Assembly (NCBI GenBank): GCA_017887325.1
Contig: JAGHIE010000007.1
Span: forward strand, 1 to 64,000
Source of the DNA: Oscillospiraceae bacterium
GTDB taxonomy: Bacteria; Bacillota; Clostridia; Oscillospirales; Ruminococcaceae
Length of the DNA stretch: 64,000 nt
Direction: 5' to 3'
Numbering within the stretch: the stretch's first letter is position 1; the number at the start of each line of letters is the position of its first letter. The position numbers and the translations under genes were made by a program. Shown here in pieces: positions 4,727 through 18,508 of this stretch. The notes under the pieces are model-generated. The model was given only the letters and a program-made list of their open reading frames with translations, ran no database searches and had not been told where the DNA came from.

Positions 4727-4812
4727 AAAAAGTTGCATCTTTATATGCAACTTTTTACCATTTTTTAGTTATTTATGGAGAGAGTTTTCTCCGAAAATAA
4801 AATAAATGGAGG
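4727..4812 (+). promoter_or_regulatory. palindromic leader element, copy 1 (upstream of amidase)
   Basis: Perfect 12-bp inverted repeat AAAAAGTTGCAT-ctttat-ATGCAACTTTTT, then hairpin GGAGA/TCTCC and CCATTT/AAATGG pairing overlapping the SD; 32-nt core repeated with 1 mismatch at 8095. Confidence 0.75.
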
Positions 4813-4818
4813 TTATAT

Positions 4819-5664
4819 ATGAAAATTTTAATTACAATTGGGCATGGTACAATAGAAGGTGGAGGATATAATCCTGGTGCTGTGGCTAATGGCTATGAAG
4901 AATTTAAAGTAGCAAGAGAAATTGGTAAGTATTGTGGTGCTTATCTAAATAATAACTTTGATGTTGAGTGTGATTTATGGAATTATAATGGCGACTTAAA
5001 TTTAACTCAAAGAATTAGCATGTTGCAAGATAACAAGTATGATTATGTTGCTGAAATGCATTTAAATGCTGGTGGTGGTGCTGGTAGTGAAGTTTATGCT
5101 TATAGTTCAACTGATAGAGGTTTTGTAGTTGCTCAAGAAATTTGTAAAGAATTATGTTCAGCTTTTGGTTGGAGAAATAGAGGTGCAAAAATATCTGGTG
5201 GTAATTATGGAATTATTGATAGAACTAAGCCAACTGCAAATTTAGTAGAAATTTGTTTTATTGATAGTTTAGATGATATAAAAAAAGTAGCAGATAGTAA
5301 AGGTCAATTGAAAGCTGGAGAAAAAATTGCAGAAGGTATTGCTAAAGGATTAGGATTAAAAAGAAAAAATCAGAGTCCTAGTAATCCTACACAACCAAGT
5401 ATACCAAATAATAAACCACAACATTTAAAAGGTACTGTTATATGTTCTGCTTTAAATATGAGAACTAAGCCTGTTACAGGTTCTGTAATTAGAGTGTTGA
5501 AAAATGGTGAATATTTTACTGTTTTATCAGCAAAAGATGGTTGGTTTTATATTGACTTTGCAGGAATTAGAGGTTATGTTGCAGTAGACGATAATTATGT
5601 TAGAGTAGAAGATTTGAACAATAAAAATAAAATTATTAAATATGGAACTCCTATTACAGGATAG
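4819..5664 (+). CDS. N-acetylmuramoyl-L-alanine amidase (Amidase_3) with C-terminal SH3 domain, endolysin-like
   Basis: ITIGHGTIEGGGYNPGAVANGYEE, EMHLNAGGGAGSEVY, VEICFID; C-terminal LNMRTKPVTGSVIRVLKNGEYFTVLSAKDGWFYIDFAGIRGYV; no signal peptide. Confidence 0.9.
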   Translation: MKILITIGHGTIEGGGYNPGAVANGYEEFKVAREIGKYCGAYLNNNFDVECDLWNYNGDLNLTQRISMLQDNKYDYVAEMHLNAGGGAGSEVYAYSSTDRGFVVAQEICKELCSAFGWRNRGAKISGGNYGIIDRTKPTANLVEICFIDSLDDIKKVADSKGQLKAGEKIAEGIAKGLGLKRKNQSPSNPTQPSIPNNKPQHLKGTVICSALNMRTKPVTGSVIRVLKNGEYFTVLSAKDGWFYIDFAGIRGYVAVDDNYVRVEDLNNKNKIIKYGTPITG

Positions 5665-5667
5665 TAG

Positions 5668-5697
5668 AAACTACTGAGATTTTCTCAGTAGTTTTTT
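5668..5697 (+). terminator. intrinsic terminator after amidase
   Basis: AAACTACTGAG-atttt-CTCAGTAGTTTTTT. Confidence 0.85.
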
Positions 5698-5763
5698 ATT
5701 TACAGCTTTCTTTTTTATGATATAATTATCTTGTAATATTTAAGTGTTTGGGAGTGGTATTTA

Positions 5764-7416
5764 ATGAAAAGTGTTACATCTGCTCAAATGAAATCTATAG
5801 AAAAAAAAGCAGTTGAAGAAATGGGAATGACCTATTATGAATTAATGCAAAATGCTGGAGTAGGAAGTTCTAGAAAAATTATAGAAAAATTTTATGTTGT
5901 AAATAAAAATATTGTAGTTTTATGTGGTAGCGGTAATAATGGTGGAGATGGTTTTGTTATTGCTAAAAACCTTTATATTAGAGGCGCTAATGTAACAGTT
6001 GTTTTATGTAAAGGACAACCTAAAACAGATGAGGCTACTAAAGCTTTTAATGAGCTAAAATCAGAAAATCTAGAAATTATAAATACTGAGGAAGATTTGC
6101 AATTAATTGTATCTAGATTAAAAGATGCCGATTTTATTGTAGATTGTATTTTTGGTACTGGATTTAGTGGTGTAATTGCTTCTAATACAAGACAGATTGT
6201 CGATAGGGCTAATGCTTCTAATGCAATTAAAATTGCAATAGATTTACCTAGTGGTGTTAATGCTGATACTGGTGAGTATCAAGGTATTTATTTTAAAGCA
6301 GACTATACTATTGTACTCGGATTGAAAAAGCGTGCACATGAATTAAATATATCTAAAGAAATTTGTGGGGAACAAATTTTAGTTGATATTGGTTTACCTT
6401 TAGATATAATAGACGATGTAGACTTGGAATATACTGAAATTACATATGATATGGTTGTTTCTATGTTGCCAGAAAGAGCAAAAAATTCTCATAAAGGTGA
6501 TTATGGTAAACTTTTAAATATTGCTGGTAGCGTTGGAATGGGTGGTGCTAGTATGATGTCTACAAAATCTGCATTAAGATGTGGTTGTGGACTTACTACT
6601 TTAGCTACTCCTAAAAGTGTTGCTTTTATGGTTTTTCCACATATTATGGAAGCTATGACAATTCCTTTGAAAGAAACTGATGTAGGATCTATTTCAAGTG
6701 ATAATTTAATTCCACTAAAAAAATTACAAGAAAATTGTGATGTTATTACTATTGGCTGTGGAATATCAAGAAACGAAGAAACTCAAAGTTTAGTTAAAGA
6801 TTTTATAGAAATTGCTAACAAACCTATGGTAATTGATGCTGATGGTCTAAATGCTATAGCTGATAGCATAGATATATTAAAGACAATTAGAAATACTGTT
6901 ATTATTACTCCACATAGTGCAGAAATGGCTAGACTTACTAATTTATCAGTAAAAGAAATTGAAGCTAAAAGAGAAAGAGTAGCTTATGAATTTGCTAAAA
7001 AATATAATGTTATTGTTGTATTAAAAGGCGCTAATACAGTTGTTGCTTTACCTGAAGGTGATATTTTTATTAATACAACTGGTACACCTGCTTTAGCTAA
7101 AGGTGGTAGTGGTGATGTTTTAACTGGTATGATAGGCTCTTTCTTAGCTCAAGGTTTATCTGCTAAAGATGCTGTTTTAATCTCTGTTTTTATCCATGGT
7201 TTAGCAGGTCAAAAATGTGAAGAAAAACTATCTGTTTATAGTGTAGTTGCTACAGATGTAATTGAACAAATTCCTATAATATTAAGAGAAATGCAAAATC
7301 AAGTAAAAAAATTACATCAAGACAAAGAAAAGGAAAAAGTTATAATTGATGATGAATATAGTAAACGCTCTCTAGTTGACGATGTAAATGCAATATTTGG
7401 TAACCTTAAATTTTAA
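5764..7416 (+). CDS. nnr: bifunctional ADP-dependent NAD(P)H-hydrate dehydratase / NAD(P)H-hydrate epimerase
   Basis: N-terminal YjeF epimerase (VLCGSGNNGGDGFVIAKNL) and C-terminal kinase-fold dehydratase (ITPHSAEMARL, GTPALAKGGSGDVLTGMI). Confidence 0.93.
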   Translation: MKSVTSAQMKSIEKKAVEEMGMTYYELMQNAGVGSSRKIIEKFYVVNKNIVVLCGSGNNGGDGFVIAKNLYIRGANVTVVLCKGQPKTDEATKAFNELKSENLEIINTEEDLQLIVSRLKDADFIVDCIFGTGFSGVIASNTRQIVDRANASNAIKIAIDLPSGVNADTGEYQGIYFKADYTIVLGLKKRAHELNISKEICGEQILVDIGLPLDIIDDVDLEYTEITYDMVVSMLPERAKNSHKGDYGKLLNIAGSVGMGGASMMSTKSALRCGCGLTTLATPKSVAFMVFPHIMEAMTIPLKETDVGSISSDNLIPLKKLQENCDVITIGCGISRNEETQSLVKDFIEIANKPMVIDADGLNAIADSIDILKTIRNTVIITPHSAEMARLTNLSVKEIEAKRERVAYEFAKKYNVIVVLKGANTVVALPEGDIFINTTGTPALAKGGSGDVLTGMIGSFLAQGLSAKDAVLISVFIHGLAGQKCEEKLSVYSVVATDVIEQIPIILREMQNQVKKLHQDKEKEKVIIDDEYSKRSLVDDVNAIFGNLKF

Positions 7417-7447
7417 TTGTTAAAATTTTACTTTGAGGTGTTCTTTG

Positions 7448-7972
7448 ATGAAAAAAAATATCTACTTGGTCTATAAGTTACCTATTTGGGTTTGTGTTTT
7501 TACTGCTATAACACTTATTACTTTGATAAGCTGTCACAATGCTACTGCAAATCCTCCATCAATAGAGTTAATAAGAAATAATTTAAAAAATAACTTTGAT
7601 TGTTCTTTTAATCTTAATGATGTATTTTTAGGTAAAATATCAAAAGGAGATAATTCCATTACTTTAAATATTGAAGAACCTAAAAACATAAGTCAATTAA
7701 ACTTTATTTTAGATGATACAGGGTTAAATTGTTCTTTTGATGATTTAACAATTGATGTTAGTAATCTGGATTTGGTAAAAGATAATAAACTTTATTTAAT
7801 TTCAGAAGCTTTAAATTCTGTTTATTTAGATAATGAAGCTCAAGTATCTAGATGGAATGATGTTGTAAAAATTAAAACTAGTTATAAAGGTAAAGAATAT
7901 AAAATATATTTGGATAAGAATTTGAATATAACTAATATAAAGTCAGAAAATTTAGATTTTTCTATTATATAA
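7448..7972 (+). CDS. small putative lipoprotein of unknown function
   Basis: N-terminal hydrophobic segment with lipobox-like LISC; good RBS before ATG 7448 (ORF track extends upstream to a TTG). Confidence 0.65.
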   Translation: MKKNIYLVYKLPIWVCVFTAITLITLISCHNATANPPSIELIRNNLKNNFDCSFNLNDVFLGKISKGDNSITLNIEEPKNISQLNFILDDTGLNCSFDDLTIDVSNLDLVKDNKLYLISEALNSVYLDNEAQVSRWNDVVKIKTSYKGKEYKIYLDKNLNITNIKSENLDFSII

Positions 7973-7974
7973 GA

Positions 7975-8007
7975 AAGAAGTGAGAATTTTTTCTCACTTC
8001 TTTTTTT
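7975..8007 (+). terminator. intrinsic terminator
   Basis: AGAAGTGAGAA-tttt-TTCTCACTTCTTTTTTT. Confidence 0.85.
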
Positions 8008-8094
8008 GTGAAATTATTTGTTTGTTTTGATTATATTAATAACAACAAATTTGTTTAAACTTACAAATATATTTTTTTGAAAAAATTTTTTAGT

Positions 8095-8186
8095 AAAAAG
8101 TTGCATATTTATATGCAACTTTTTACTGCTTTTACATGTATAGTGAAAGGGTTTTTAAATCTTTTCAAATATTTGATTGCAGGAGG
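8095..8186 (+). promoter_or_regulatory. palindromic leader element, copy 2 (upstream of phage-like structural operon)
   Basis: AAAAAGTTGCAT-atttat-ATGCAACTTTTT (extendable to 15 bp, AGT/ACT), then hairpin TGAAAGG/CTTTTCA and CTGC/GCAG pairing abutting SD GGAGG. Confidence 0.75.
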
Positions 8187-8196
8187 ATAGTTTGAT

Positions 8197-8694
8197 TTGA
8201 ACAAAAAAGAAAGATTGTTTTGTTATCATTACTACACGCTTAGAAATCTAAAAGAAGCGTCAATTAAAGCAGGATATAATCCTAAGATAGCTGAAAATAC
8301 AGCAATTAGATTGATACAGCGTGAAGATATTAGACAGTTGATATTAAGTTTTGATTTGGAAAAAGAAAAGAAACAACTTGAAAAAGATGTTATTGCTATT
8401 CTTAAAAGAATTGCTTTTAATCCTTTACAAGATAGTATTAATTTACTTTTTCTAAATGAAGATGATGCAAAAGAAAAAATTAGCGAGTTGGATTTATTTT
8501 GTGTCAGTGAAATTAAAAAACCAAAAGATGGTTCTTTGGAAATTAAATTTATGGACAGATATAGAGCTTTAGAAAAATTATTGGAAATTTCTAATTCTGA
8601 TAATGGTGCTCAGACTTTACAAAGTTTATATAAAGCTTTAAATAATTCAACTCAAAATACAAGTGCTGAAGGTGCTTTAGATTATGATGTTTAA
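8197..8694 (+). CDS. phage terminase small subunit (XtmA-like)
   Basis: MNKKERLFCYHYYTLRNLKEASIKAGYNPKIAENTAIRLIQREDIRQLI pattern; directly precedes the large subunit; TTG start. Confidence 0.85.
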   Translation: MNKKERLFCYHYYTLRNLKEASIKAGYNPKIAENTAIRLIQREDIRQLILSFDLEKEKKQLEKDVIAILKRIAFNPLQDSINLLFLNEDDAKEKISELDLFCVSEIKKPKDGSLEIKFMDRYRALEKLLEISNSDNGAQTLQSLYKALNNSTQNTSAEGALDYDV

Positions 8695-9931
8695 TTCTTT
8701 TTCACCCAAACAAAAATTGGTTTTAAATTGGTGGTGTAAAGACAGTCCATATAATTTATATGATGCTATTATTTGTGATGGTGCTGTTAGAAGTGGAAAG
8801 ACTTTGTGTATGTCTTTATCATTTTGTCTTTGGGCTAGTGCTAATTTTCAGAATAGTTCATTTGCTCTTTGTGGAAAAACGATAACTTCTTTGAGAAGAA
8901 ATTTAGTTACTCCTATGCTCAATTTGCTAAGAAATTTAGGATATAGTTGTGAAGAAAAAATTTCAAGAGGTTATATTGATATTTCTTATTTGGATATTAC
9001 AAATAGATTCTATCTGTTTGGAGGAAATGATGAATCTTCTGCTTCTAAAATTCAAGGGGTTACTTTAGCAGGTGTTTTATTTGATGAAGTTGCTTTGATG
9101 CCTAGAAGCTTTGTAGAACAAGCATTAGCTAGATGTTCTGTAAATGGTTCTAAATTTTGGTTTAACTGTAATCCTGAAAATCCTTATCATTGGTTTTATC
9201 TTGAATGGATAAAAAAGTCAAAACAAAAAAATGCTCTATATTTACATTTTTTAATGAAGGATAATCCATCTTTATCTAAAAAAATTATAAAAAGATATGA
9301 GAATATGTATTCCGGTGCTTTTTATGACAGATTTATTTTAGGAAAATGGGTTAGACCAACTGGTCTTGTTTATCCTATGTTTGATTATGATAAACATACA
9401 TTTGATAAAGATTTAGGTTTTTCTAATTATTATGTTTCGTGCGATTATGGAACTGTTAATCCTACTTCCATGGGACTTTGGGGTTTTAATAATAATATTT
9501 GGTATAGAATTAAAGAGTTTTATTATAACTCAAGGGTTGAAGGTTCTCAAAAAACTGATGAAGAATATTATCAATGTTTGGAAGATTTGGTAGGTGACTT
9601 GGATATTAACGCTGTGATTGTTGATCCATCTGCTGCTAGTTTTATTGAGTGTATTAGAAGACACAATAAATTTACTGTTATTCCAGCTCAGAATGATGTT
9701 ATTGGGGGAATAAGAAAAGTAAGTGAAAAATTGAAAAGTAATCAGATCAAGATTAATAAGTCTTGTAAAGATTCTATCAGAGAGTTCGGTATTTATGCTT
9801 GGGAAGATAATACAGGAAAAGATATTCCTAAAAAAGAAAATGACCATGCCATGGACGATATTAGGTATTTTATAAGTACGGTTGTATTTGATAATAGTTG
9901 TGACTTTTTTGTTCTAAATGTGGATAGGTAA
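8684..9931 (+). CDS. phage terminase large subunit (XtmB-like)
   Basis: Walker A GAVRSGKT, Walker B-like GVLFDEVAL, nuclease motifs SCDYGTVNPT, VDPSAASF, NDHAMDDIRY intact. Confidence 0.95.
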   Translation: MMFNSFSPKQKLVLNWWCKDSPYNLYDAIICDGAVRSGKTLCMSLSFCLWASANFQNSSFALCGKTITSLRRNLVTPMLNLLRNLGYSCEEKISRGYIDISYLDITNRFYLFGGNDESSASKIQGVTLAGVLFDEVALMPRSFVEQALARCSVNGSKFWFNCNPENPYHWFYLEWIKKSKQKNALYLHFLMKDNPSLSKKIIKRYENMYSGAFYDRFILGKWVRPTGLVYPMFDYDKHTFDKDLGFSNYYVSCDYGTVNPTSMGLWGFNNNIWYRIKEFYYNSRVEGSQKTDEEYYQCLEDLVGDLDINAVIVDPSAASFIECIRRHNKFTVIPAQNDVIGGIRKVSEKLKSNQIKINKSCKDSIREFGIYAWEDNTGKDIPKKENDHAMDDIRYFISTVVFDNSCDFFVLNVDR

Positions 9932-9956
9932 AAAAAGTTTATTGGAGGTGTGAACA

Positions 9957-11099
9957 CTGGCTTTATTCAAAAGAAAAAAACAATCAAATAATAATATTAT
10001 TCAACTGGATAGAAGTTCTAAAAATATTTTTTCTAATCTGAATAATTATATTCCTCTATCAAAACCTGAATATTCTTTATATGAAAGTATTAGAGAGGGA
10101 GTTCCTATTGTAGATTCTGCAATACTTAAAATTGTAAGATTAGTTGGTGGTTTTGAAGTTGATGTAAAAAATAAAAAAGCTAAAACAGAACTTGATTTCT
10201 TTATGAAAAATGTAAATGTAGGTGGGATTAATAGAGGAATAGAGTGTTTTATTGCTAATTATTTAGATGATTTATTGATGTATGGGAATGCCATTGGAGA
10301 AATTGTTTTAGAAAAAGGAAATAATATTGTTGGATTATTTAATGCAGATGTAAAAAATATTAGTGTTAAACCAACAGAGAAAAATCCTTTGGAAGTAGAT
10401 TTTTTTATTAATTCGAATGGGGTAATAAATAGCAAAGTAAAGAATAAAAACTTAATATTATTTACTGCTTTAAATCCTAAGTCATCTGAATATACTGGGG
10501 TATCTATTTTAAATAGTTTACCTTTTGTTAGTAAAATTTTGCTTCAAATTTATAATTCTATAGGAACTAATTTTGAGCGAATAGGGAATGTTAGATATGC
10601 AGTTACATATAAACCATCTAATGATGCTATGGATAAGGTTTATGCAAAAGAAAGAGCTTCTCTTATTGCTAAAGAATGGTCTGATGGAATGAAAGCTTTA
10701 TCTCAAGGTTGTGTTAAGGACTTTGTTACTGTTGGAGATGTCGATATAAAGGTAATTGGTGCTGATAATCAAATTATTGATACACAAGTTCCTGTTAGAC
10801 AAATGTTAGAGCAAATTGTTGCCAAAATTGGTATTCCACCTTTTTTATTGGGGTTATCTTGGTCAACAACCGAAAGAATGAGTAAACAACAAGCAGACTT
10901 ATTGACTACTGAATTGGAATTTTATAGAAGAATTATTTCTCCAGTTATTTTAAAGGTTGCTAGGACTTTTTTAAGACTTAATGGTTATAGTGATGAACCT
11001 ATTATAAAATGGAATACCATCAATTTAAAAGACGAAGTAGAACAAGCAACAGCTTTATTTTATAATGCTAAAGCTGAAAGTTTAAAAAAACAAAATTAG
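9957..11099 (+). CDS. phage portal protein (XkdE-like), predicted CTG start
   Basis: Reading frame extends upstream of the ATG at 10203 (LALFKRKKQSNNNIIQLDRSSKNIFSNLNNYIPLSKPEYSLYESIREGVPIVDSAILKIVRLVGGFEV); in-frame TGA at 9951; SD GGAGGTG 9944-9950; C-terminal portal motifs (KIGIPPFLLGLSWSTTERMSKQQADLL). Confidence 0.88.
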   Translation: MALFKRKKQSNNNIIQLDRSSKNIFSNLNNYIPLSKPEYSLYESIREGVPIVDSAILKIVRLVGGFEVDVKNKKAKTELDFFMKNVNVGGINRGIECFIANYLDDLLMYGNAIGEIVLEKGNNIVGLFNADVKNISVKPTEKNPLEVDFFINSNGVINSKVKNKNLILFTALNPKSSEYTGVSILNSLPFVSKILLQIYNSIGTNFERIGNVRYAVTYKPSNDAMDKVYAKERASLIAKEWSDGMKALSQGCVKDFVTVGDVDIKVIGADNQIIDTQVPVRQMLEQIVAKIGIPPFLLGLSWSTTERMSKQQADLLTTELEFYRRIISPVILKVARTFLRLNGYSDEPIIKWNTINLKDEVEQATALFYNAKAESLKKQN

Positions 11100-11111
11100 A
11101 AAGGAGTATTG

Positions 11112-12056
11112 ATGTTGAATAATATTGATAACGATTTATTAGATGATTTAAAACTTATAAATCAATACACTCGCAGAGAATTATCTTTAGACGAGGTTTA
11201 TATTTTTAATGTTATTTTATGTGATAACGAAGTAGATAGAGATTATGAAGCTTTTTCGCTAAATTCTTTAAACAAATTAGCAGAGTTGTTTTTAGGAAAA
11301 ACAGGTATATTTGATCATAATCCTAAAGGAAGTAATCAAACAGCTAGAATTTTTGATACTCAAGTTATTACAGATAATTCTAAAGTTACAAAATATGGAC
11401 AAGCTTATTCATACATAAAAGCTAAAGCATATATGATTAAATCCGATAAAAACAAAGATTTAATTTTAGACATTGATGCAGGAATTAAAAAAGAAGTTAG
11501 TGTTGGTTGTAGCGTAAAAGATAAAATTTGTTCTATTTGTGGTACTAATTTAAAAAATGATTTTTGCGAACATAATTTAGGTGAGTATTATGACGGTAAA
11601 CTATGCTTTGTAATTTTAGATAATCCTACTGATGCTTATGAATGGTCATTTGTAGCTGTTCCTGCTCAAATTAATGCTGGAGTTACAAAATCTTTTAGCA
11701 ATGATTTTTCTGATATAGATACTATTTTAAAAACTAGTAAAAATTCTATAACTCTATCACGAAAAGAAATAGATATTGTTGTAAATAAATTAAATGAATA
11801 TAAAAAATTAGCTTTAAATGGTGAAATTTATAAAAATGAAATTAAAAAAGATATTATATCTTCACTTTATTTAAGTGATATGAATTTAGATAGTAAAATT
11901 TTTAGTAATATTTGTGACAAGCTATCTATTGATGAATTAAAAGAACTGAAAAAATTTTTTGAAAAACAAGTTGTAGAAAAAAATTTAATTAGTAATTCTC
12001 AGCTAGTTAATAAAAAAGAAAGTAATAATAATAAAAATTTTGATTTTAAAATTTAA
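11112..12056 (+). CDS. prohead protease/scaffold-like protein (XkdF-like)
   Basis: LGKTGIFDHNP and KKEVSVGCSV (His/Ser motifs), CxxC/CxH cluster CSICGTNLKNDFCEH, WSFVAVPAQ; position between portal and capsid; helical lysine-rich C-terminus. Confidence 0.8.
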   Translation: MLNNIDNDLLDDLKLINQYTRRELSLDEVYIFNVILCDNEVDRDYEAFSLNSLNKLAELFLGKTGIFDHNPKGSNQTARIFDTQVITDNSKVTKYGQAYSYIKAKAYMIKSDKNKDLILDIDAGIKKEVSVGCSVKDKICSICGTNLKNDFCEHNLGEYYDGKLCFVILDNPTDAYEWSFVAVPAQINAGVTKSFSNDFSDIDTILKTSKNSITLSRKEIDIVVNKLNEYKKLALNGEIYKNEIKKDIISSLYLSDMNLDSKIFSNICDKLSIDELKELKKFFEKQVVEKNLISNSQLVNKKESNNNKNFDFKI

Positions 12057-12073
12057 GAAAGGTTTGGTGTTTT

Positions 12074-12415
12074 ATGAGTATATGTGTTAATTCTATTGGG
12101 GAAGTTACTATATCTTTAAAAAAAGAGGGAAATGTTAACGTTGGCGATTTAGTTATGATGAGTTCATCAAATCAAACTGCAAAAGTTGCTGATAATGATG
12201 TTGATCCTATTGGTGTTTGTGTTTCTAAAAATGGAGATTACATTGGAGTAATGATTAGTGGTGGTGTCACTTTAAATTGTGATGGTGGACTAACAACAGG
12301 GTTTCACCCTATAAAAGTTCAAACAGGCAATAAAATTACTGCGGGTGAAAGTGGTAAAACTAGATTAATTATTGATGTTAATACAACTGCAAAAACTGCA
12401 CAAGTTATTCTTTAA
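12074..12415 (+). CDS. capsid decoration-like protein (DUF2190-like)
   Basis: 113-aa beta-rich protein (VNVGDLVMMSSSNQTAKVADNDVDPIGVCVS) directly upstream of the capsid gene. Confidence 0.6.
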   Translation: MSICVNSIGEVTISLKKEGNVNVGDLVMMSSSNQTAKVADNDVDPIGVCVSKNGDYIGVMISGGVTLNCDGGLTTGFHPIKVQTGNKITAGESGKTRLIIDVNTTAKTAQVIL

Positions 12416-12438
12416 TTTGAAAAGGAGATGTTTATAAT

Positions 12439-13449
12439 ATGAGATTTGATAATTTAAATTTAGAAAAAGGTATGTATTCTATTAGTGGGAAAGCTTTTAC
12501 TTCTGTTTTAGAAGAATTAGACCCTACAGAAAATTATATTGGTACTAAATTAGAAGGTTTAGATGCTTTTGAAAGACAATTAAAAAGATTTGACATTAAA
12601 GTTTCTGGAAGTAAATCAGACTGTGTAGAAAAATTCTTTAGTACTTCTACTTCTGCAACTTTATTTCCAGAATATGTAAGACGAGCTGTTATTAGTGGTA
12701 TTGGCGAAAGTGAAATTTTAAATAACATTATTGCTAGTAAAACTTACATAAATTCATTAGATTACCGTTCTATTACTTCTAATCCTTCTGAAGATGATAA
12801 GTCTTTAAAAGTTGTAAACGAGGGTGCTGGAATTCCTACTACTACTATTAAAACTCAAGAAAATTTAGTTAAGCTAAATAAAAGGGGCCGTATGTTAGTG
12901 GCTTCATATGAAGCTATTAAATTTCAACGTTTAGATTTATTTACTGTTGCTTTAAAACAAATTGGTGCGACTATTGCTAAACAACAATTACAAGATGCTA
13001 TTAATGTGTTGATTAATGGTGATAGTAATAATAATAAAGCTGAAGAAATTGAGTTAGGTGGAGAAGGTTTTCAATATTCAGATTTAGTTAATCTTTGGAG
13101 TAAATTTGAAGATTTTGAGTTAAATACTTTACTTGCTAATAATGACACTATTGTAAAAATGTTGTCTTTAACAGAATTTAAAGATCCTGTTACAGGACTT
13201 AATTTCCAAAACACAGGTAAGTTAGCTACTCCAATTGGTGCTAATTTATTTAAAACTAATGCTGTGCCTAAAGATAGAATTATTGCTTTGGATAAAAATT
13301 GTGCTTTAGAAATGGTTTGTGCAGGTGATGTGAGCATTGAGTATGATAAATTAATTGATAGACAATTAGAGCGAGCTGCTATTACTTCTACTGCAGGTTT
13401 TGCAAAAATATTTAATGATGCAACAAAAGTTTTAAAAACAGCAGAATAA
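12439..13449 (+). CDS. phage major capsid protein (XkdG-like)
   Basis: 336 aa; FSTSTSATLFPEYVRRAVISGI, LVKLNKRGRMLVASYEAIKFQRLDLF; location after protease/decoration. Confidence 0.85.
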   Translation: MRFDNLNLEKGMYSISGKAFTSVLEELDPTENYIGTKLEGLDAFERQLKRFDIKVSGSKSDCVEKFFSTSTSATLFPEYVRRAVISGIGESEILNNIIASKTYINSLDYRSITSNPSEDDKSLKVVNEGAGIPTTTIKTQENLVKLNKRGRMLVASYEAIKFQRLDLFTVALKQIGATIAKQQLQDAINVLINGDSNNNKAEEIELGGEGFQYSDLVNLWSKFEDFELNTLLANNDTIVKMLSLTEFKDPVTGLNFQNTGKLATPIGANLFKTNAVPKDRIIALDKNCALEMVCAGDVSIEYDKLIDRQLERAAITSTAGFAKIFNDATKVLKTAE

Positions 13450-13501
13450 TATTACCTACTTCTTAAAAAGAAGTAGGTAAATAAACTTAGAAAGGACAAA
13501 T

Positions 13502-13858
13502 ATGGATATTTTTAAAATACAATCTGCTTTTATGGAAATAAGTGGATTAAGTGAACAAGAGTGTGCTAATTATTTAAATCTTTTTAAAACAGCTGACATT
13601 CAGATAAGTAAAAAAATTAAAAAAGGTATTGATATTAATCAAAATGAACCTTTATTAGTAGAGGTAGCAGGTGCTATTGCGTATTATATGTATTGTTTAA
13701 TGCAAAGTAAAAAAATGGCGAATGTAAGTGTTTTAGATGTGAAAATAGAACTCGATAAAAATATTTCTTTAAATAGTGCTAAAAAATATCGTGATGAATT
13801 ATTACTATTAGCTAGTGATATTTTAGTTGATGAAAATTTTGATTTTATTTCAACTTAA
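13502..13858 (+). CDS. putative head-tail connector protein
   Basis: 118 aa, position equivalent to xkdH region; no clear motif. Confidence 0.45.
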   Translation: MDIFKIQSAFMEISGLSEQECANYLNLFKTADIQISKKIKKGIDINQNEPLLVEVAGAIAYYMYCLMQSKKMANVSVLDVKIELDKNISLNSAKKYRDELLLLASDILVDENFDFIST

Positions 13859-13869
13859 AGGAGTTTGAT

Positions 13870-14196
13870 ATGAAATATAATGAGATTTTAAATTGTTTTT
13901 TTGAAAATTACGGATCTAATGTAGTTGATTATAAAACAAATAAATGTATTAAAGGGGTTATTGCACCTGTAAAAGATTTAAGTTTAAAATATAATGATTT
14001 ATCATTTAATGATTTAGGATTTATGCCTAAGACTGAGTGGATTTTGATTAGTCAGTTAGATGATGAAATTATAAAAGTTGATAACTGTGTAATTATTGAT
14101 AATAAACTTATGAAAATTATTAATTGTGATAATTATTTATTGGCTGACAAACCTTTTTATAAAAGAGCTTTTTTATATCAGATAAGGGAGTTGTAA
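13870..14196 (+). CDS. putative head-completion/connector protein
   Basis: 108 aa, position only. Confidence 0.4.
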   Translation: MKYNEILNCFFENYGSNVVDYKTNKCIKGVIAPVKDLSLKYNDLSFNDLGFMPKTEWILISQLDDEIIKVDNCVIIDNKLMKIINCDNYLLADKPFYKRAFLYQIREL

Positions 14197-14199
14197 AAT

Positions 14200-14694
14200 T
14201 TGATAAATTGCATGAGTGTTTCTGAGATAAAAAAAGAGATTTATGATTTGATGAAGTCTAAATTTTCTGAATTTATTATAATTGATGAATTTAATAAAAA
14301 TCAATTTTTTGGAATATGTAAAAATAATTATATTTGTATTAAATTAAAAGAAATTAAAACTGATAATATTTGTTTTCAAGATTATTTAGATAAAGGAGTT
14401 TTAAAAGAAAACTCTTCTCAGATTTTTGGACAAAAGGCAAATATAAAATTTGAATTTTTAATATATAACAAATTAAGTGATGATATAAATTTATCAGATT
14501 TATTTTTAGAAATTTATAATGTTTTATCAAGTTATGATGATGTTTCTTTTAATCACTTTTCTTTTTCTAAGACAGAATATATAGAAAATATTCAAGGCTT
14601 TTGTACTAGTCTTTTTGTTGATTGTGAAACCATTATTACTGCTGTTAATCAAAGTGAAAATATTTCTGATATCGTTGTGTCATATAAAAAGTAA
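14200..14694 (+). CDS. putative tail terminator/completion protein (XkdJ position)
   Basis: 164 aa, directly precedes sheath; position-based. Confidence 0.45.
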   Translation: MINCMSVSEIKKEIYDLMKSKFSEFIIIDEFNKNQFFGICKNNYICIKLKEIKTDNICFQDYLDKGVLKENSSQIFGQKANIKFEFLIYNKLSDDINLSDLFLEIYNVLSSYDDVSFNHFSFSKTEYIENIQGFCTSLFVDCETIITAVNQSENISDIVVSYKK

Positions 14695-14705
14695 GGGGTG
14701 ATTAT

Positions 14706-15743
14706 ATGGATAATTTTAGGTCTGGGGTTTATACATCGTTTAATATAAATCAAATTTATTCTGATTATAAAAACAGAGAAATTGGACTTATTGCTGTTTG
14801 CAATAAACAAGATTTGATTAATAATCACATTGTTGTAAATTCGTTAGCAAAGGCAAAAGAAGTTTTTGGAGAGGCAAGTGATGAAAACGAAGTAATGTGT
14901 TTATTAACAGCTATTTTTATGAATGTAAATACTGTGGTAAATGTTGTACCTATAGCTAGTTCTGATACACAAAACTATAAAAATGCGTTAGATATAATTC
15001 TTCAAAAAGATTCATATATTTTATGTTTTGGTAGTATTAATAACGATTTTTTAGAATATTTAAAATTAAAATTAAATGAATATGAAAAAATTGGGAAAGA
15101 AAAAATTGCAATAGTTTCCTCAAGTGAGGTTGAAGATGCTAAAGCTAAAGCTAAAATAAATGATAAAAGAATTTTAGTATCTTTTCCAAAAATTACTTTA
15201 AAAGATAGCAATATAAATTTATCAGGTGCTATTTTATCTAGTTTAATTAGTAAAGTCAAAAACATAACTTTAAATTTAAGCAATTGTGATATTTTACCAG
15301 ATTTTAGATTAACTCAAAATACTGATGATAATCAAATAAGTGAGTTATTAAAATCAGGTGTTTGTGTTTTTGAAAATCAAACTAATATTATTAAATTAAT
15401 TAGAGCAATTACTACTAGTACTTTAGACGAAGAAGATAATGAAGATTTTACATATAGAAATTTATCAACAGTTTTAATTATTGATACTGTAATTCCAGCT
15501 ATAAGAGAAATTTTAAAAAATAAATTATTAAATGCTAACAATAATTCAATTACAATAAATTCGGTTATGGCTTTGATTATTTCTAAATTAGATTATTTTG
15601 TTGATATTAATTATATTTCTTCATATAAAAAGCCTAATATATATGTTGGTGAAGATGATCAGAGTGTTTGTTTTGTTGAGTTAAGTTTTACTATAGTTCA
15701 AGGAGTTTATCAAGTGTATTTGAATGTGGAAGTAAATGTTTAG
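14706..15743 (+). CDS. contractile tail sheath protein (XkdK-like)
   Basis: FRSGVYTSFNI...REIGLIAVCNK N-terminal sheath pattern; YVGEDDQSVCFVELSFTIVQGVYQVYLNVEVNV C-terminal beta handshake-like end. Confidence 0.85.
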   Translation: MDNFRSGVYTSFNINQIYSDYKNREIGLIAVCNKQDLINNHIVVNSLAKAKEVFGEASDENEVMCLLTAIFMNVNTVVNVVPIASSDTQNYKNALDIILQKDSYILCFGSINNDFLEYLKLKLNEYEKIGKEKIAIVSSSEVEDAKAKAKINDKRILVSFPKITLKDSNINLSGAILSSLISKVKNITLNLSNCDILPDFRLTQNTDDNQISELLKSGVCVFENQTNIIKLIRAITTSTLDEEDNEDFTYRNLSTVLIIDTVIPAIREILKNKLLNANNNSITINSVMALIISKLDYFVDINYISSYKKPNIYVGEDDQSVCFVELSFTIVQGVYQVYLNVEVNV

Positions 15744-15751
15744 AAGGAGGT

Positions 15752-16138
15752 ATGTTTTTGTTTAAGATACCAACGGGAAAAGATATATATATAGAAGTTG
15801 ATGGTAATAGAGTTGCAGTTGTACAAAGCTATGTTTGTAAGACTAAAAAAGAGAACACGCATATAAGAGCTTTTGGTTATATTAATAATGTTGCATGTAT
15901 ACCATCTGGAGTGACATATAAAATAGAATTATCAAAAATTATTCCAATTGGAATAAATGAAAATCAAGTTATAGATTTTTATGATTTAAGCAATTTTTCA
16001 TTAGTGATTATTAAACCTGATTGCCAAATAATTTATTCAGGTTGTGAATGGGAAGATATCAGTGAAATATCAGATATTAATTCTCCTTGTATTGAAAAAA
16101 TTACTCTTGTTGCCAACAAAAGATTGGTTGTAAAGTAG
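15752..16138 (+). CDS. tail tube protein (XkdM-like)
   Basis: 128 aa beta-rich protein directly after sheath (syntenic with xkdM). Confidence 0.7.
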   Translation: MFLFKIPTGKDIYIEVDGNRVAVVQSYVCKTKKENTHIRAFGYINNVACIPSGVTYKIELSKIIPIGINENQVIDFYDLSNFSLVIIKPDCQIIYSGCEWEDISEISDINSPCIEKITLVANKRLVVK

Positions 16139-16146
16139 GAGGGGAC

Positions 16147-16455
16147 ATGAAGCTATTAGAAAAACAAGTTGAAATTAAAGAATTATCTGCTTTAGAAGTA
16201 TTAGAATGCTCTAAAATGGCAGATAGTTTGAAATTAGAGCTAAAAAAAGAAGATTTTAATGAAGAATTGACTGATATATTATGTGAAAATGGAGCTTTAG
16301 CATTTATGTGTGTTTACCATGAAAATAATAGATTATTTTTGTCACCTAAAGATGCTTTAGAAAAATTAAAATTGAGTCAATTAGTTGAAATATATGATTA
16401 TTATCAGGCTGTTTTTATAGATAAGGTGGAGTGTTGTTTGAATGAAAATTTTTAA
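16147..16455 (+). CDS. tail assembly chaperone-like protein (XkdN-like)
   Basis: 102 aa, helical, position after tube; overlaps the next ORF by 14 nt. Confidence 0.6.
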   Translation: MKLLEKQVEIKELSALEVLECSKMADSLKLELKKEDFNEELTDILCENGALAFMCVYHENNRLFLSPKDALEKLKLSQLVEIYDYYQAVFIDKVECCLNENF

Positions 16456-16672
16456 AGATTATCTATTAAAAAATAATAGTAGTAGATTGGATAACAATAT
16501 AAAGTTTGATTTTAATAAAAATTCAAATGATATTTTATCTGTAAAAGTAACAGATGAGTTTCAACAGGTTGAGTCAGTAAATATAAATAATTTTAATAAA
16601 GATAATTTAGAAGAATATGAACGCTTAGAAGAATATGAGAGAAGAAGATCTATTTTATCTTTAGAGTTATAA
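16442..16672 (+). CDS. 76-aa protein of unknown function at the tape-measure position
   Basis: Small charged ORF between chaperone-like and LysM genes; translationally coupled overlap with upstream gene. Confidence 0.6.
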   Translation: MKIFKDYLLKNNSSRLDNNIKFDFNKNSNDILSVKVTDEFQQVESVNINNFNKDNLEEYERLEEYERRRSILSLEL

Positions 16673-16686
16673 AAAGGAGGAATTTT

Positions 16687-17205
16687 TTGTTTTCTATTTT
16701 AAAATTTAAAGACTATCAATTTAAATTTAATCCTGAAAAATTTTCTATTTCTCAAAAAAGACAATTAAAATTATTTGCTTGTCCTAATTTTGACGTACAA
16801 ATTCAAGATTTAGGATTTATGCCAAGAGTTATTACTGGAGAAGGAATTCTTGTTGGTGATGACTTGATGAAAGAATTTGAGAAAATTTCTAATTTACATA
16901 ATCAAGAGAATAGTGGATTACTGTATTTACCTAATTTATCTCCTTTTTATTGCTATTTTAATGATTTACAAATTATAGGACAAGCTGGTGAAATGGTATT
17001 GAGATATAAATTTGAATTTATAGAAGATGCTCCTAAAAATAGTAGAAATATAAAATCTGTAAAATCATACTATATTGTTAGAAAAGGCGAAACATTGGTA
17101 GAAATTGCAAGTAAAAATAATATTGCTTTGGACAAATTAAAGCAATTAAATCCATCATATAATAATCTAACTTTAAAAGAAGGGGATATTATATGGTTAA
17201 GTTAG
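16687..17205 (+). CDS. LysM-domain baseplate protein (XkdP-like)
   Basis: C-terminal LysM YYIVRKGETLVEIASKNNIALDKLKQLNPSYNNLTLKEGDIIWLS. Confidence 0.88.
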   Translation: MFSILKFKDYQFKFNPEKFSISQKRQLKLFACPNFDVQIQDLGFMPRVITGEGILVGDDLMKEFEKISNLHNQENSGLLYLPNLSPFYCYFNDLQIIGQAGEMVLRYKFEFIEDAPKNSRNIKSVKSYYIVRKGETLVEIASKNNIALDKLKQLNPSYNNLTLKEGDIIWLS

Positions 17206-18152
17206 ATATTGAGGCTTTATCTAATAAAAATGAAAAAATATCTTTAGACAAAGTTGTGGATTTCTCTTTTCAAAGTGACAGATTTTCTCCAGCAGATACA
17301 GTTAATTTAACTGTTTTGGACAATATAAAAAATAAAAAAATAACAAAAATATCAATAGGATTAAATAATATTATGATTTTTGATGGGATAGTCGATGTGC
17401 AAAAATCAACAATGAATAAAGATGGAATTTTTTCTATATTTATTTGCAGATCTCGTCCATGTTTGATGTTAGACAATGAAATAAAGCCTACTGTTTATAA
17501 TAATTTATCTGCTGTAGATATGTTAAAAGAAAACGCACTATCTTTTGGTGTTAGTGCTTACAAAATACCCTATAATTGTACGCTCAATAGGATTATAGCA
17601 AAAAAGGGGATTTCTAGGTGGGAGTTTATAAATTTATTTTGTAAAAAAGCTTTTGGAAAAACACCATTTATAGCTAGAGATTACACTTTATCACTTGAAC
17701 CAACAAGTAATGTTAATCATTATTTTTCTAATAATAACGGAATTTCTTTTTTTGAGGCTTCTGTTTTAGAAGATAGATATACAATGATTTCTAAATTGTA
17801 TGTAAAAACTGGTGAAAATGATTTTGGTGCAGAATATAACGGAATTATTAATAATAATATTGCTAAAGATTTGGGCATAAAAAGAGAAAGATATTATAAT
17901 CCAACTACTGAGTGGTTAGATGATATAAAGCTTAGTGCGAAAAATGTTATGAGAGAACACCAGATTAATTATAGAGAGATAGAAATCAAGGTATTAGGTA
18001 TAAATGATTTTAAAGTTGGTGATTTAGCTCGAATTGATAGTGATATAGGTACTTATCAAAATTTATATATATCTCAAGTTAAAATTATGTGTAATGACAA
18101 TGGATATTATACTAGATTGAGGTTATGGGATAGAGGTGTAGTTGTTGAATAA
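17193..18152 (+). CDS. baseplate hub protein (XkdQ / late control D-like)
   Basis: 319 aa; position after LysM protein; GISRWEFINLFCKKAFG hub-like segment. Confidence 0.75.
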   Translation: MVKLDIEALSNKNEKISLDKVVDFSFQSDRFSPADTVNLTVLDNIKNKKITKISIGLNNIMIFDGIVDVQKSTMNKDGIFSIFICRSRPCLMLDNEIKPTVYNNLSAVDMLKENALSFGVSAYKIPYNCTLNRIIAKKGISRWEFINLFCKKAFGKTPFIARDYTLSLEPTSNVNHYFSNNNGISFFEASVLEDRYTMISKLYVKTGENDFGAEYNGIINNNIAKDLGIKRERYYNPTTEWLDDIKLSAKNVMREHQINYREIEIKVLGINDFKVGDLARIDSDIGTYQNLYISQVKIMCNDNGYYTRLRLWDRGVVVE

Positions 18153-18492
18153 TAAATATTTTAAGAATAATAGTGTAGATATGCCTATTAATTCGATAGT
18201 TACTTCTATAAACAAAAATGTTTTACAAACAAGTGGAGATATAAACTTAAATAATGTAAAAATATTATCATTAAATGGATTTATAACAAAACCAGATTTG
18301 AATGATGAAGTAGTTTTATTACCTTTAAAAAATGGTGATTACATATCTTTAGGAAATGTTTTAAAAGATAATCTTGATGAAGACTGTGAAATGATAATTA
18401 AATCAAAATCGGGTGGATTTTTAAAGTTTTTTAAAGACGGAAGTGTAAGTATGAATGGATTTAGAATAAGCAAAGATGGAGACATTATGTAG
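18142..18492 (+). CDS. baseplate spike-like protein (XkdR/gpV-like)
   Basis: 116 aa with OB-like N-terminus (PDLNDEVVLLPLKNGDYISLGNVL) and C-terminal beta-helix-like SKSGGFLKFFKDGSVSMNGFRISKDGDI. Confidence 0.65.
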   Translation: MLNNKYFKNNSVDMPINSIVTSINKNVLQTSGDINLNNVKILSLNGFITKPDLNDEVVLLPLKNGDYISLGNVLKDNLDEDCEMIIKSKSGGFLKFFKDGSVSMNGFRISKDGDIM

Positions 18493-18508
18493 TTTAAGGA
18501 GTGTATAG

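What the first reader, a model, noticed from the sequence alone, without database searches (positions are those of the whole stretch)
4727..8126. Nearly identical 32-nt palindromic leader shared by the amidase gene and the structural operon 3.4 kb away
Seen: 4727-4758 and 8095-8126 both read AAAAAGTTGCAT[C/A]TTTATATGCAACTTTTTAC (31/32 identical) with perfect 12-bp arms and a 6-nt loop. Each follows a separate terminator and ends about 60-75 nt before the start codon. I found no further copy in this window. Inference: a dedicated regulon linking lysis enzyme and particle genes, either as an operator for a dimeric regulator or as an RNA hairpin (antitermination/attenuation). It does not resemble a Bacillus-type LexA box.
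Basis: seen in the sequence. Interest (0 to 1): 0.82.

Follow-up and report, generated by a model that had tools for sequence, protein, structure and literature searches.

The report
Shared switch for a phage-like particle
The two matching DNA palindromes are the control sites of one promoter type that, across many gut bacteria of the order that includes Ruminococcus, switches on a scattered set of former virus genes together (capsid, tail fibre, cell lysis, DNA replication starters); they probably belong to a gene-transfer-agent-like particle whose control had not been described.

Summary
The 2.28 Mb genome holds only five perfect copies, against none for the reversed pattern. The dyad is part of a promoter. 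A -10-like box and [A/G]TGAAAGG follow at a fixed 23 nt, so its centre sits near -41.5, the classic site for an activator overlapping -35. The same geometry precedes terS in many relatives, including Ruminococcus flavefaciens, while the arm sequences change together (GTTGCAY, TTCAAYG, TGTGTAY). A test anchored on the downstream box alone found 31 such dyads, against 0-5 at shifted registers. The promoter drives a dispersed regulon: terS-terL structural operon, amidases/lysozymes/holins, tail-fibre genes, DnaD-like, DUF6291 and other replication starters, and toxin-immunity pairs. Genes on the other side of the sites are ordinary housekeeping genes. TerL follows the host genera and the structural operon has no integrase or replication genes, so this looks like a domesticated, GTA-like particle. 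The dedicated-regulon idea is upheld; the RNA-hairpin alternative is disfavoured; activator binding is inferred. The regulator is unidentified: ArpU was not found in the own genome and CRP is unlikely. Host-DNA packaging is untested. A 2026 paper shows a related GTA in Faecalibacterium; no regulator turned up in the passages I searched.

The parts
4727..4758 (+). Dyad A (core GTTGCAT-N6-ATGCAAC at 4732-4751) upstream of the amidase gene
4770..4782 (+). -10-like box TATTTA (4770-4775) and start-site element ATGGAGAG (4775-4782), exactly 23 nt after the dyad core; degenerate copy of [A/G]TGAAAGG
   Evidence: register defined
4777..4792 (+). Second inverted repeat GGAGA-N6-TCTCC over the inferred start site
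4819..5664 (+). N-acetylmuramoyl-L-alanine amidase (Amidase_3 + SH3_3), phage endolysin type; single-gene unit
8092..8127 (+). Dyad B (core 8100-8119) upstream of the structural operon; arms 16 bp
8139..8150 (+). -10-like box TATAGT (8139-8144) and conserved GTGAAAGG (8143-8150), 23 nt after the dyad core
8144..8167 (+). Second inverted repeat TGAAAG...CTTTTCA over the inferred start site
8197..8694 (+). Small terminase subunit (Terminase_2)
8684..9931 (+). Large terminase subunit; relatives in 184 of 299 family genomes
9957..11099 (+). Portal protein; homology starts about 9957 behind GGAGG, probably at a CTG start
11109..13449 (+). phrog_16951 protein (11109-12056), small virion protein (12074-12415), major head protein (12439-13449)
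13502..20431 (+). Head-tail and contractile-tail/baseplate genes (sheath 14706-15743, LysM 16687-17205, wedge subunit 18509-18871, Baseplate J 18872-19939, tail protein 19943-20431); no tape-measure-sized gene

Best explanation
Each palindrome is the binding site of an unidentified dimeric transcription factor. It is centred about 41 bp upstream of the transcription start of a shared promoter type that has a -10-like box but no proper -35 box. Bound there, the factor most likely contacts the sigma subunit and recruits RNA polymerase (class II activation). One activator thereby switches on, from scattered sites, everything needed for a domesticated phage-like particle, probably a gene transfer agent: terminase/capsid/tail operon, host-recognition fibres, holin and cell-wall hydrolases, and genes that start or prime DNA replication. 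Shown here: exact sites, fixed spacing, conservation, co-varying arms, coherent regulon. Inferred: protein binding, activation rather than repression, GTA function.
For: Spacing: three of the five own copies carry AGTGAAAGGG at an identical distance with 0 mismatches, and the amidase copy has ATGGAGAG in the same register. Family search: 70 of 299 genomes and well over 100 hits, against 1 for the reversed pattern. Anchored test without using palindromy: 15 of 39 perfect anchors have at least 6 of 7 arm pairs, always on one dyad axis; with relaxed anchors 31 of 145, against 0-5 at shifted registers, with compensatory arm changes. A second arm class (TTCAAYG) has 17 sites and 0 in the control, before terS, Phage_rep_O, DUF6291, primase-like CHC2 and holin-M23 genes. 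Downstream proteins are DUF6291 x8, GH25, BppU, holins, CHAP, M23, Amidase_3, replisome organiser, barnase-barstar; upstream neighbours are housekeeping. TerL tree follows genera: 7 changes, the minimum, against 13.5 shuffled.
Against: No regulator gene was found and no binding or transcription data exist. About 20 of 69 examined sites have no gene starting within 320 nt, many of them in one genome with about 12 copies (G071). The own amidase and methyltransferase sites have degenerate start-site elements. Many TerL-bearing relatives show no recognisable dyad with these arms, so other arm classes or other control must exist. The second inverted repeat at the start site (10 of 31 against 0.8 expected) points to an additional, unexplained control.
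Confidence: 0.76

Rival explanations
1. The palindromes are operators of a repressor overlapping the -35 region; the regulon is on by default and silenced by a dimer.
For: A dyad over -35 also suits repression; the second inverted repeat on the start site in 10 of 31 promoters is a typical repressor position.
Against: The promoters lack a -35 box that would work unaided, and the dyad is held at one spacing from -10 across very different arms, as expected for an activator touching sigma; a repressor site could drift.
Confidence: 0.15
2. They are intrinsic terminators or transcribed RNA hairpins (attenuator or antiterminator).
For: Alone they look like terminators: stem plus T-run, flagged by the scan, and they fold strongly as RNA (z -5.8 and -7.2).
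Against: Separate terminators already precede each site; only 3-4 G-C pairs; in Ruminococcus the arms become TTCAACG...CGTTGAA without a T-run while the distance to the -10 box stays 23 nt; genes start downstream on the same strand in recurrent clusters. No Rfam match.
Confidence: 0.05
3. The element is an ordinary, perhaps decaying, prophage and the site is the late promoter of a phage activator of the RinA/Ltr kind; copies elsewhere belong to other prophages.
For: One own copy precedes the last gene of an intact siphovirus prophage (C12); some regulon genes sit in phage-like replication modules (L276).
Against: No integrase, repressor or replication genes next to the structural operon in the window or recurrently in 80 relatives; TerL follows host genera; copies drive lone genes between housekeeping genes; ArpU not found in the own genome.
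Confidence: 0.15
4. The copies are a dispersing repeat (MITE-like) that lands by chance before phage genes.
For: G071 has about 12 near-identical copies, several before housekeeping genes at 250-500 nt.
Against: Most genomes hold 1-5 copies with divergent spacers and loops; the same gene classes recur under unrelated arm sequences.
Confidence: 0.03

Closest known systems
FpGTA of Faecalibacterium (PMC12946183)
   Same: Oscillospirales gut bacteria; TerS-TerL-portal-capsid operon plus a separate operon with fibre, holin and endolysin elsewhere; no tape-measure-sized gene in our operon, as fits a very short tail
   Different: Packaging shown there, not here; the window's operon has contractile-tail/baseplate genes; homology to FpGTA proteins not tested; the passages I searched name no promoter or regulator
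Caulobacter GTA control by GafY/GafZ/IHF (PMC11150451)
   Same: One activator reads the main GTA operon and about 18 accessory promoters elsewhere, contacting sigma-70
   Different: Here a perfect dyad near -41.5 replaces the far-upstream GafY site; GafZ uses a palindrome between -10 and -35; no GafY/Z relative was searched for
RinA/ArpU/Ltr late activators of Gram-positive phages (PMC13123087)
   Same: Activation of one promoter just before terS
   Different: Phi13 Ltr is thought to use direct repeats at -107 to -42; those regulators lie next to terS; ArpU not found in the own genome; here the regulon is dispersed
PBSX of Bacillus subtilis
   Same: Domesticated contractile particle; the sheath, LysM, baseplate J and tail gene set resembles PBSX (gene-by-gene likeness from own knowledge)
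   Different: PBSX is one contiguous prophage-like element; no dispersed dyad regulon known
CRP/FNR class II activation
   Same: Dyad with N6 spacer centred at -41.5
   Different: CRP-type HTH above cut-off is missing in three strong-site genomes

Membership tests
Gene transfer agent | No integration or replication genes in the structural locus | tested here: met
   Window 8197-20431 holds only packaging and structural genes; flanks are chromosomal, no recurrent integrase in 80 loci
Gene transfer agent | Vertical inheritance with the host | tested here: met
   TerL tree of 30 genomes: 8 genera need 7 changes, the minimum; shuffled 13.5
Gene transfer agent | Particle genes spread over several loci and co-regulated by the host | tested here: met
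   Shared promoter at terS, lysis, fibre and replication loci; co-expression itself not measured
Gene transfer agent | Packages random host DNA | not testable with these tools
   Shown for Faecalibacterium and inferred for R. callidus in PMC12946183, not for this genome
RinA/ArpU/Ltr late-activator system | A regulator gene of that family in the genome, beside terS | tested here: not met
   TIGR01637: no match in the own genome, none above cut-off in 15 genomes; no regulator recurs upstream of terS. RinA and Ltr models were not searched
CRP/FNR class II activator | Every genome with strong sites encodes a CRP-type HTH | tested here: not met
   G140, G219 and G194 have no PF13545 match above cut-off
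CRP/FNR class II activator | Dyad with N6 spacer centred near -41.5 | tested here: met
   assumes the -10 assignment
LexA (Bacillus type) regulon | GAAC-N4-GTTC box | tested here: not met
   Neither arm class fits; the second repeat TGAACG-N7-CGTTCA in Ruminococcus has the wrong spacing
Intrinsic terminator | G-C-rich stem plus T-run at the end of a transcript, free to move relative to the next promoter | tested here: not met
   Flagged as terminator-like but fixed spacing to -10 and arm classes without a T-run

The most novel reading that the evidence does not exclude
The activator couples particle production to extra DNA replication: the same co-evolving promoter controls capsid and lysis genes together with replication starters (DnaD-like, DUF6291, phage replisome organiser, Phage_rep_O, CHC2 primase, in two genera also sitting upstream of dnaA). 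Host chromosome regions would then be amplified to feed packaging, as phage-derived run-off replication does for the Bartonella GTA (own knowledge), and toxin-immunity pairs under the promoter would be loaded into or released with the particles.
Probability: 0.35. Interest if true: 0.9.

Novelty: new variant of a known kind. Interest (0 to 1): 0.8.

Why it matters
Gene-transfer-agent-like packaging was recently shown to be common in human gut Oscillospirales, but I found no account of how these bacteria control it. This finding gives a cis-element that can be searched in any genome. It predicts which scattered genes belong to the particle (fibres, lysis, replication, toxins), shows that the control is old and has co-evolved across at least two families, and turns the hunt for the regulator into a pull-down with a 50-bp probe.

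Tried and rejected
First promoter pattern had the wrong spacing, corrected. ArpU late regulators and CRP-type HTH tested as regulator. A small XRE protein near some sites lies 2-2.6 kb upstream of TerL in a handful of Ruminococcus loci where the recurrent neighbours are azlCD-like transport genes, and is not a consistent partner. The reduced 0.7 Mb genome G095 was considered for listing its few regulators, but its particle operon looks decayed. Zur boxes of Desulfovibrio (ATGCAAC-N3-GTTGCAT) have inverted arm order and another spacer. Rfam gave nothing. Sites at C6 and C22 with two mismatches (GTTGTAT...ATACAAC) lie inside coding DNA and were dismissed. The portal gene looked truncated but is intact from a non-standard start. 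Searches showed that searching for one arm sequence misses most lineages, which led to the anchored test.

Full report
Observation. The two 32-mers are exactly as described; they are the only copies in the window with up to 3 mismatches and none is expected by chance. In the 2.28 Mb draft genome the core GTTGCAT-N6-ATGCAAC occurs five times and the reversed control never. Besides the two in the window: C4:38840, before a lone gene for a DnaD-like/replication-initiation protein between a polysaccharide exporter and a redoxin gene; C12:38018, before a D12 DNA adenine methyltransferase that ends an apparently intact siphovirus prophage; and C17:18437, with no gene on its strand.

The genes. The 8197-20431 operon encodes TerS, TerL, portal, major head protein, sheath, LysM, baseplate and tail proteins. 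Nothing longer than about 345 aa lies between the head and baseplate genes, so a normal tape-measure protein is missing, also in most relatives. The amidase at 4819 is a phage-type endolysin. Between the two units lie an NAD(P)H-hydrate repair gene (5764-7416) and a small unknown gene, so the palindromes bracket unrelated chromosomal genes. There is no integrase, repressor or replication gene beside the operon in the window.

It is a promoter. Three of the five own copies have AGTGAAAGGG at an identical 23-nt distance, found with 0 mismatches when the spacing was fixed, preceded by TATAGT, TATTAG or TATAGT. If the T before GAAAGG is position -7, the dyad centre is at -41.5. The amidase copy has TATTTATGGAGAG in the same register. 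Across 299 family genomes the composite pattern has well over 100 hits in 70 genomes, against 1 for the reversed control. A non-redundant set of 64 sites shows the dyad, a T-run, a second T-rich patch about 10 nt on, then TATwAgTGAAAGG.

Unbiased test. To avoid selecting palindromes, I anchored on [A/G]TGAA[A/C/G]GG upstream of TerL in 100 distinct relatives and asked where arms pair. Of all spacer and offset combinations, the best is N6 at 23 nt; the runners-up are the same axis with other spacers. With one mismatch allowed in the anchor, 31 of 145 anchors have at least 6 of 7 pairs in that register, against 0-5 when slid by 3-9 nt. The arms fall into several classes: GTTGCAY, TTCAAYG, TGTGTAY and others. 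Most arm positions change through matched changes on both sides. This is what a dimeric DNA-binding protein with evolving specificity predicts. A transcribed hairpin would also give matched arms, but not a fixed distance to a -10 box lying downstream of it.

The regulon. I fetched about 60 further sites. Downstream on the same strand, usually 60-120 nt away, come recurrent gene classes. Pfam on 59 such proteins: DUF6291 (8), GH25 lysozyme (3), BppU fibre (3), DUF4417 (3), Mu-F-like head domain (3), holins, Amidase_3, M23, CHAP, tail collar, phage replisome organiser, RepA_N, VapE, DnaG zinc ribbon, D12 methyltransferase, barnase with barstar, TNT toxin with Imm63. The nearest upstream neighbours of the sites, a matched control, give 51 families; the 25 listed are each seen once and almost all are housekeeping. 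In Ruminococcus, where the arms read TTCAAYG, an independent search found 17 sites and 0 in the control. Besides terS these precede Phage_rep_O (R. flavefaciens FD-1), DUF6291, a CHC2 primase-like gene, holin plus M23 peptidase, and fibre-like genes. Two different recognition sequences thus govern the same functional set. In two further genera a dyad promoter points at dnaA, where dnaA keeps its own promoter. A smaller order-wide sample finds multi-site genomes in a second family (G543).

Domestication. Strong TerL matches (about 48-66% identity) dominate among 184 of 299 family genomes, usually one copy. The TerL tree groups rows by host genus as well as it possibly could. Flanking genes differ between lineages and are chromosomal. 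A 2026 study shows GTA-like packaging in Faecalibacterium, Ruminococcus callidus and relatives and describes two unlinked FpGTA operons, one structural, one with fibre and lysis genes; no regulator or promoter is named in the text I searched. The layout here, structural operon plus separate lysis and fibre units, matches that description, but I could not compare protein sequences.

Mechanism. Most likely an unknown dimeric activator binds at about -41.5 and recruits sigma-A polymerase to promoters that lack a -35 box. The analogy is GafY of Caulobacter, which binds the GTA promoter and about 18 accessory ones and contacts RpoD. A second inverted repeat sits on the start site in 10 of 31 terS promoters, 0.8 expected, and in both window promoters a hairpin folds there; it may be a repressor site or an mRNA 5' stem. 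The regulator is not ArpU-type and probably not CRP-type.

Limits. Some hits with 3 mismatches are chance hits in coding DNA. About 20 of 69 sites have no gene within 320 nt, many in G071 with about 12 copies. Nearly all relatives are draft genomes. No expression, binding or packaging data were available. The host family is only known by code; named relatives are Ruminococcus, Oscillospiraceae and Anaerotruncus records.

Noticed in passing
L239, L240 and L007 (own contig C12, 1-39123): Apparently intact siphovirus prophage (integrase, 1440-aa tape measure, holin, amidase, AAA ATPase plus subtilase pair); its last gene, a D12 methyltransferase, has the host regulon dyad 83 nt upstream.
   Followed up: partly
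L005 8438-8550 (own contig C17): Perfect regulon promoter with no ORF behind it; a transcript would end after about 110 nt at a terminator-like hairpin: possible small RNA or a lost gene.
   Followed up: no
L169, L171, L170 (genome G158): Mu-F-like head domain fused to a barnase-type RNase, followed by barstar; elsewhere in the set a TNT toxin and Imm63: toxin-immunity cargo under the particle promoter.
   Followed up: partly
L274 and L281: Regulon dyad promoter pointing at dnaA in two different genera, in tandem with dnaA's own promoter.
   Followed up: partly
window 4777-4792 and 8144-8167; relatives: A second, sequence-variable inverted repeat over the inferred transcription start.
   Followed up: partly
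window 9931-10203: Portal homology begins about 80 codons before the first common start codon, behind GGAGG; probably a CTG start.
   Followed up: yes
L177 (G095, 0.7 Mb genome): Reduced genome keeps TerL and part of the operon with a dyad between TerL and later genes; the portal and capsid region seems decayed.
   Followed up: no
L157-L166 (genome G071): About 12 near-identical copies of the promoter, several 250-500 nt before housekeeping genes (tgt, MATE exporter).
   Followed up: no
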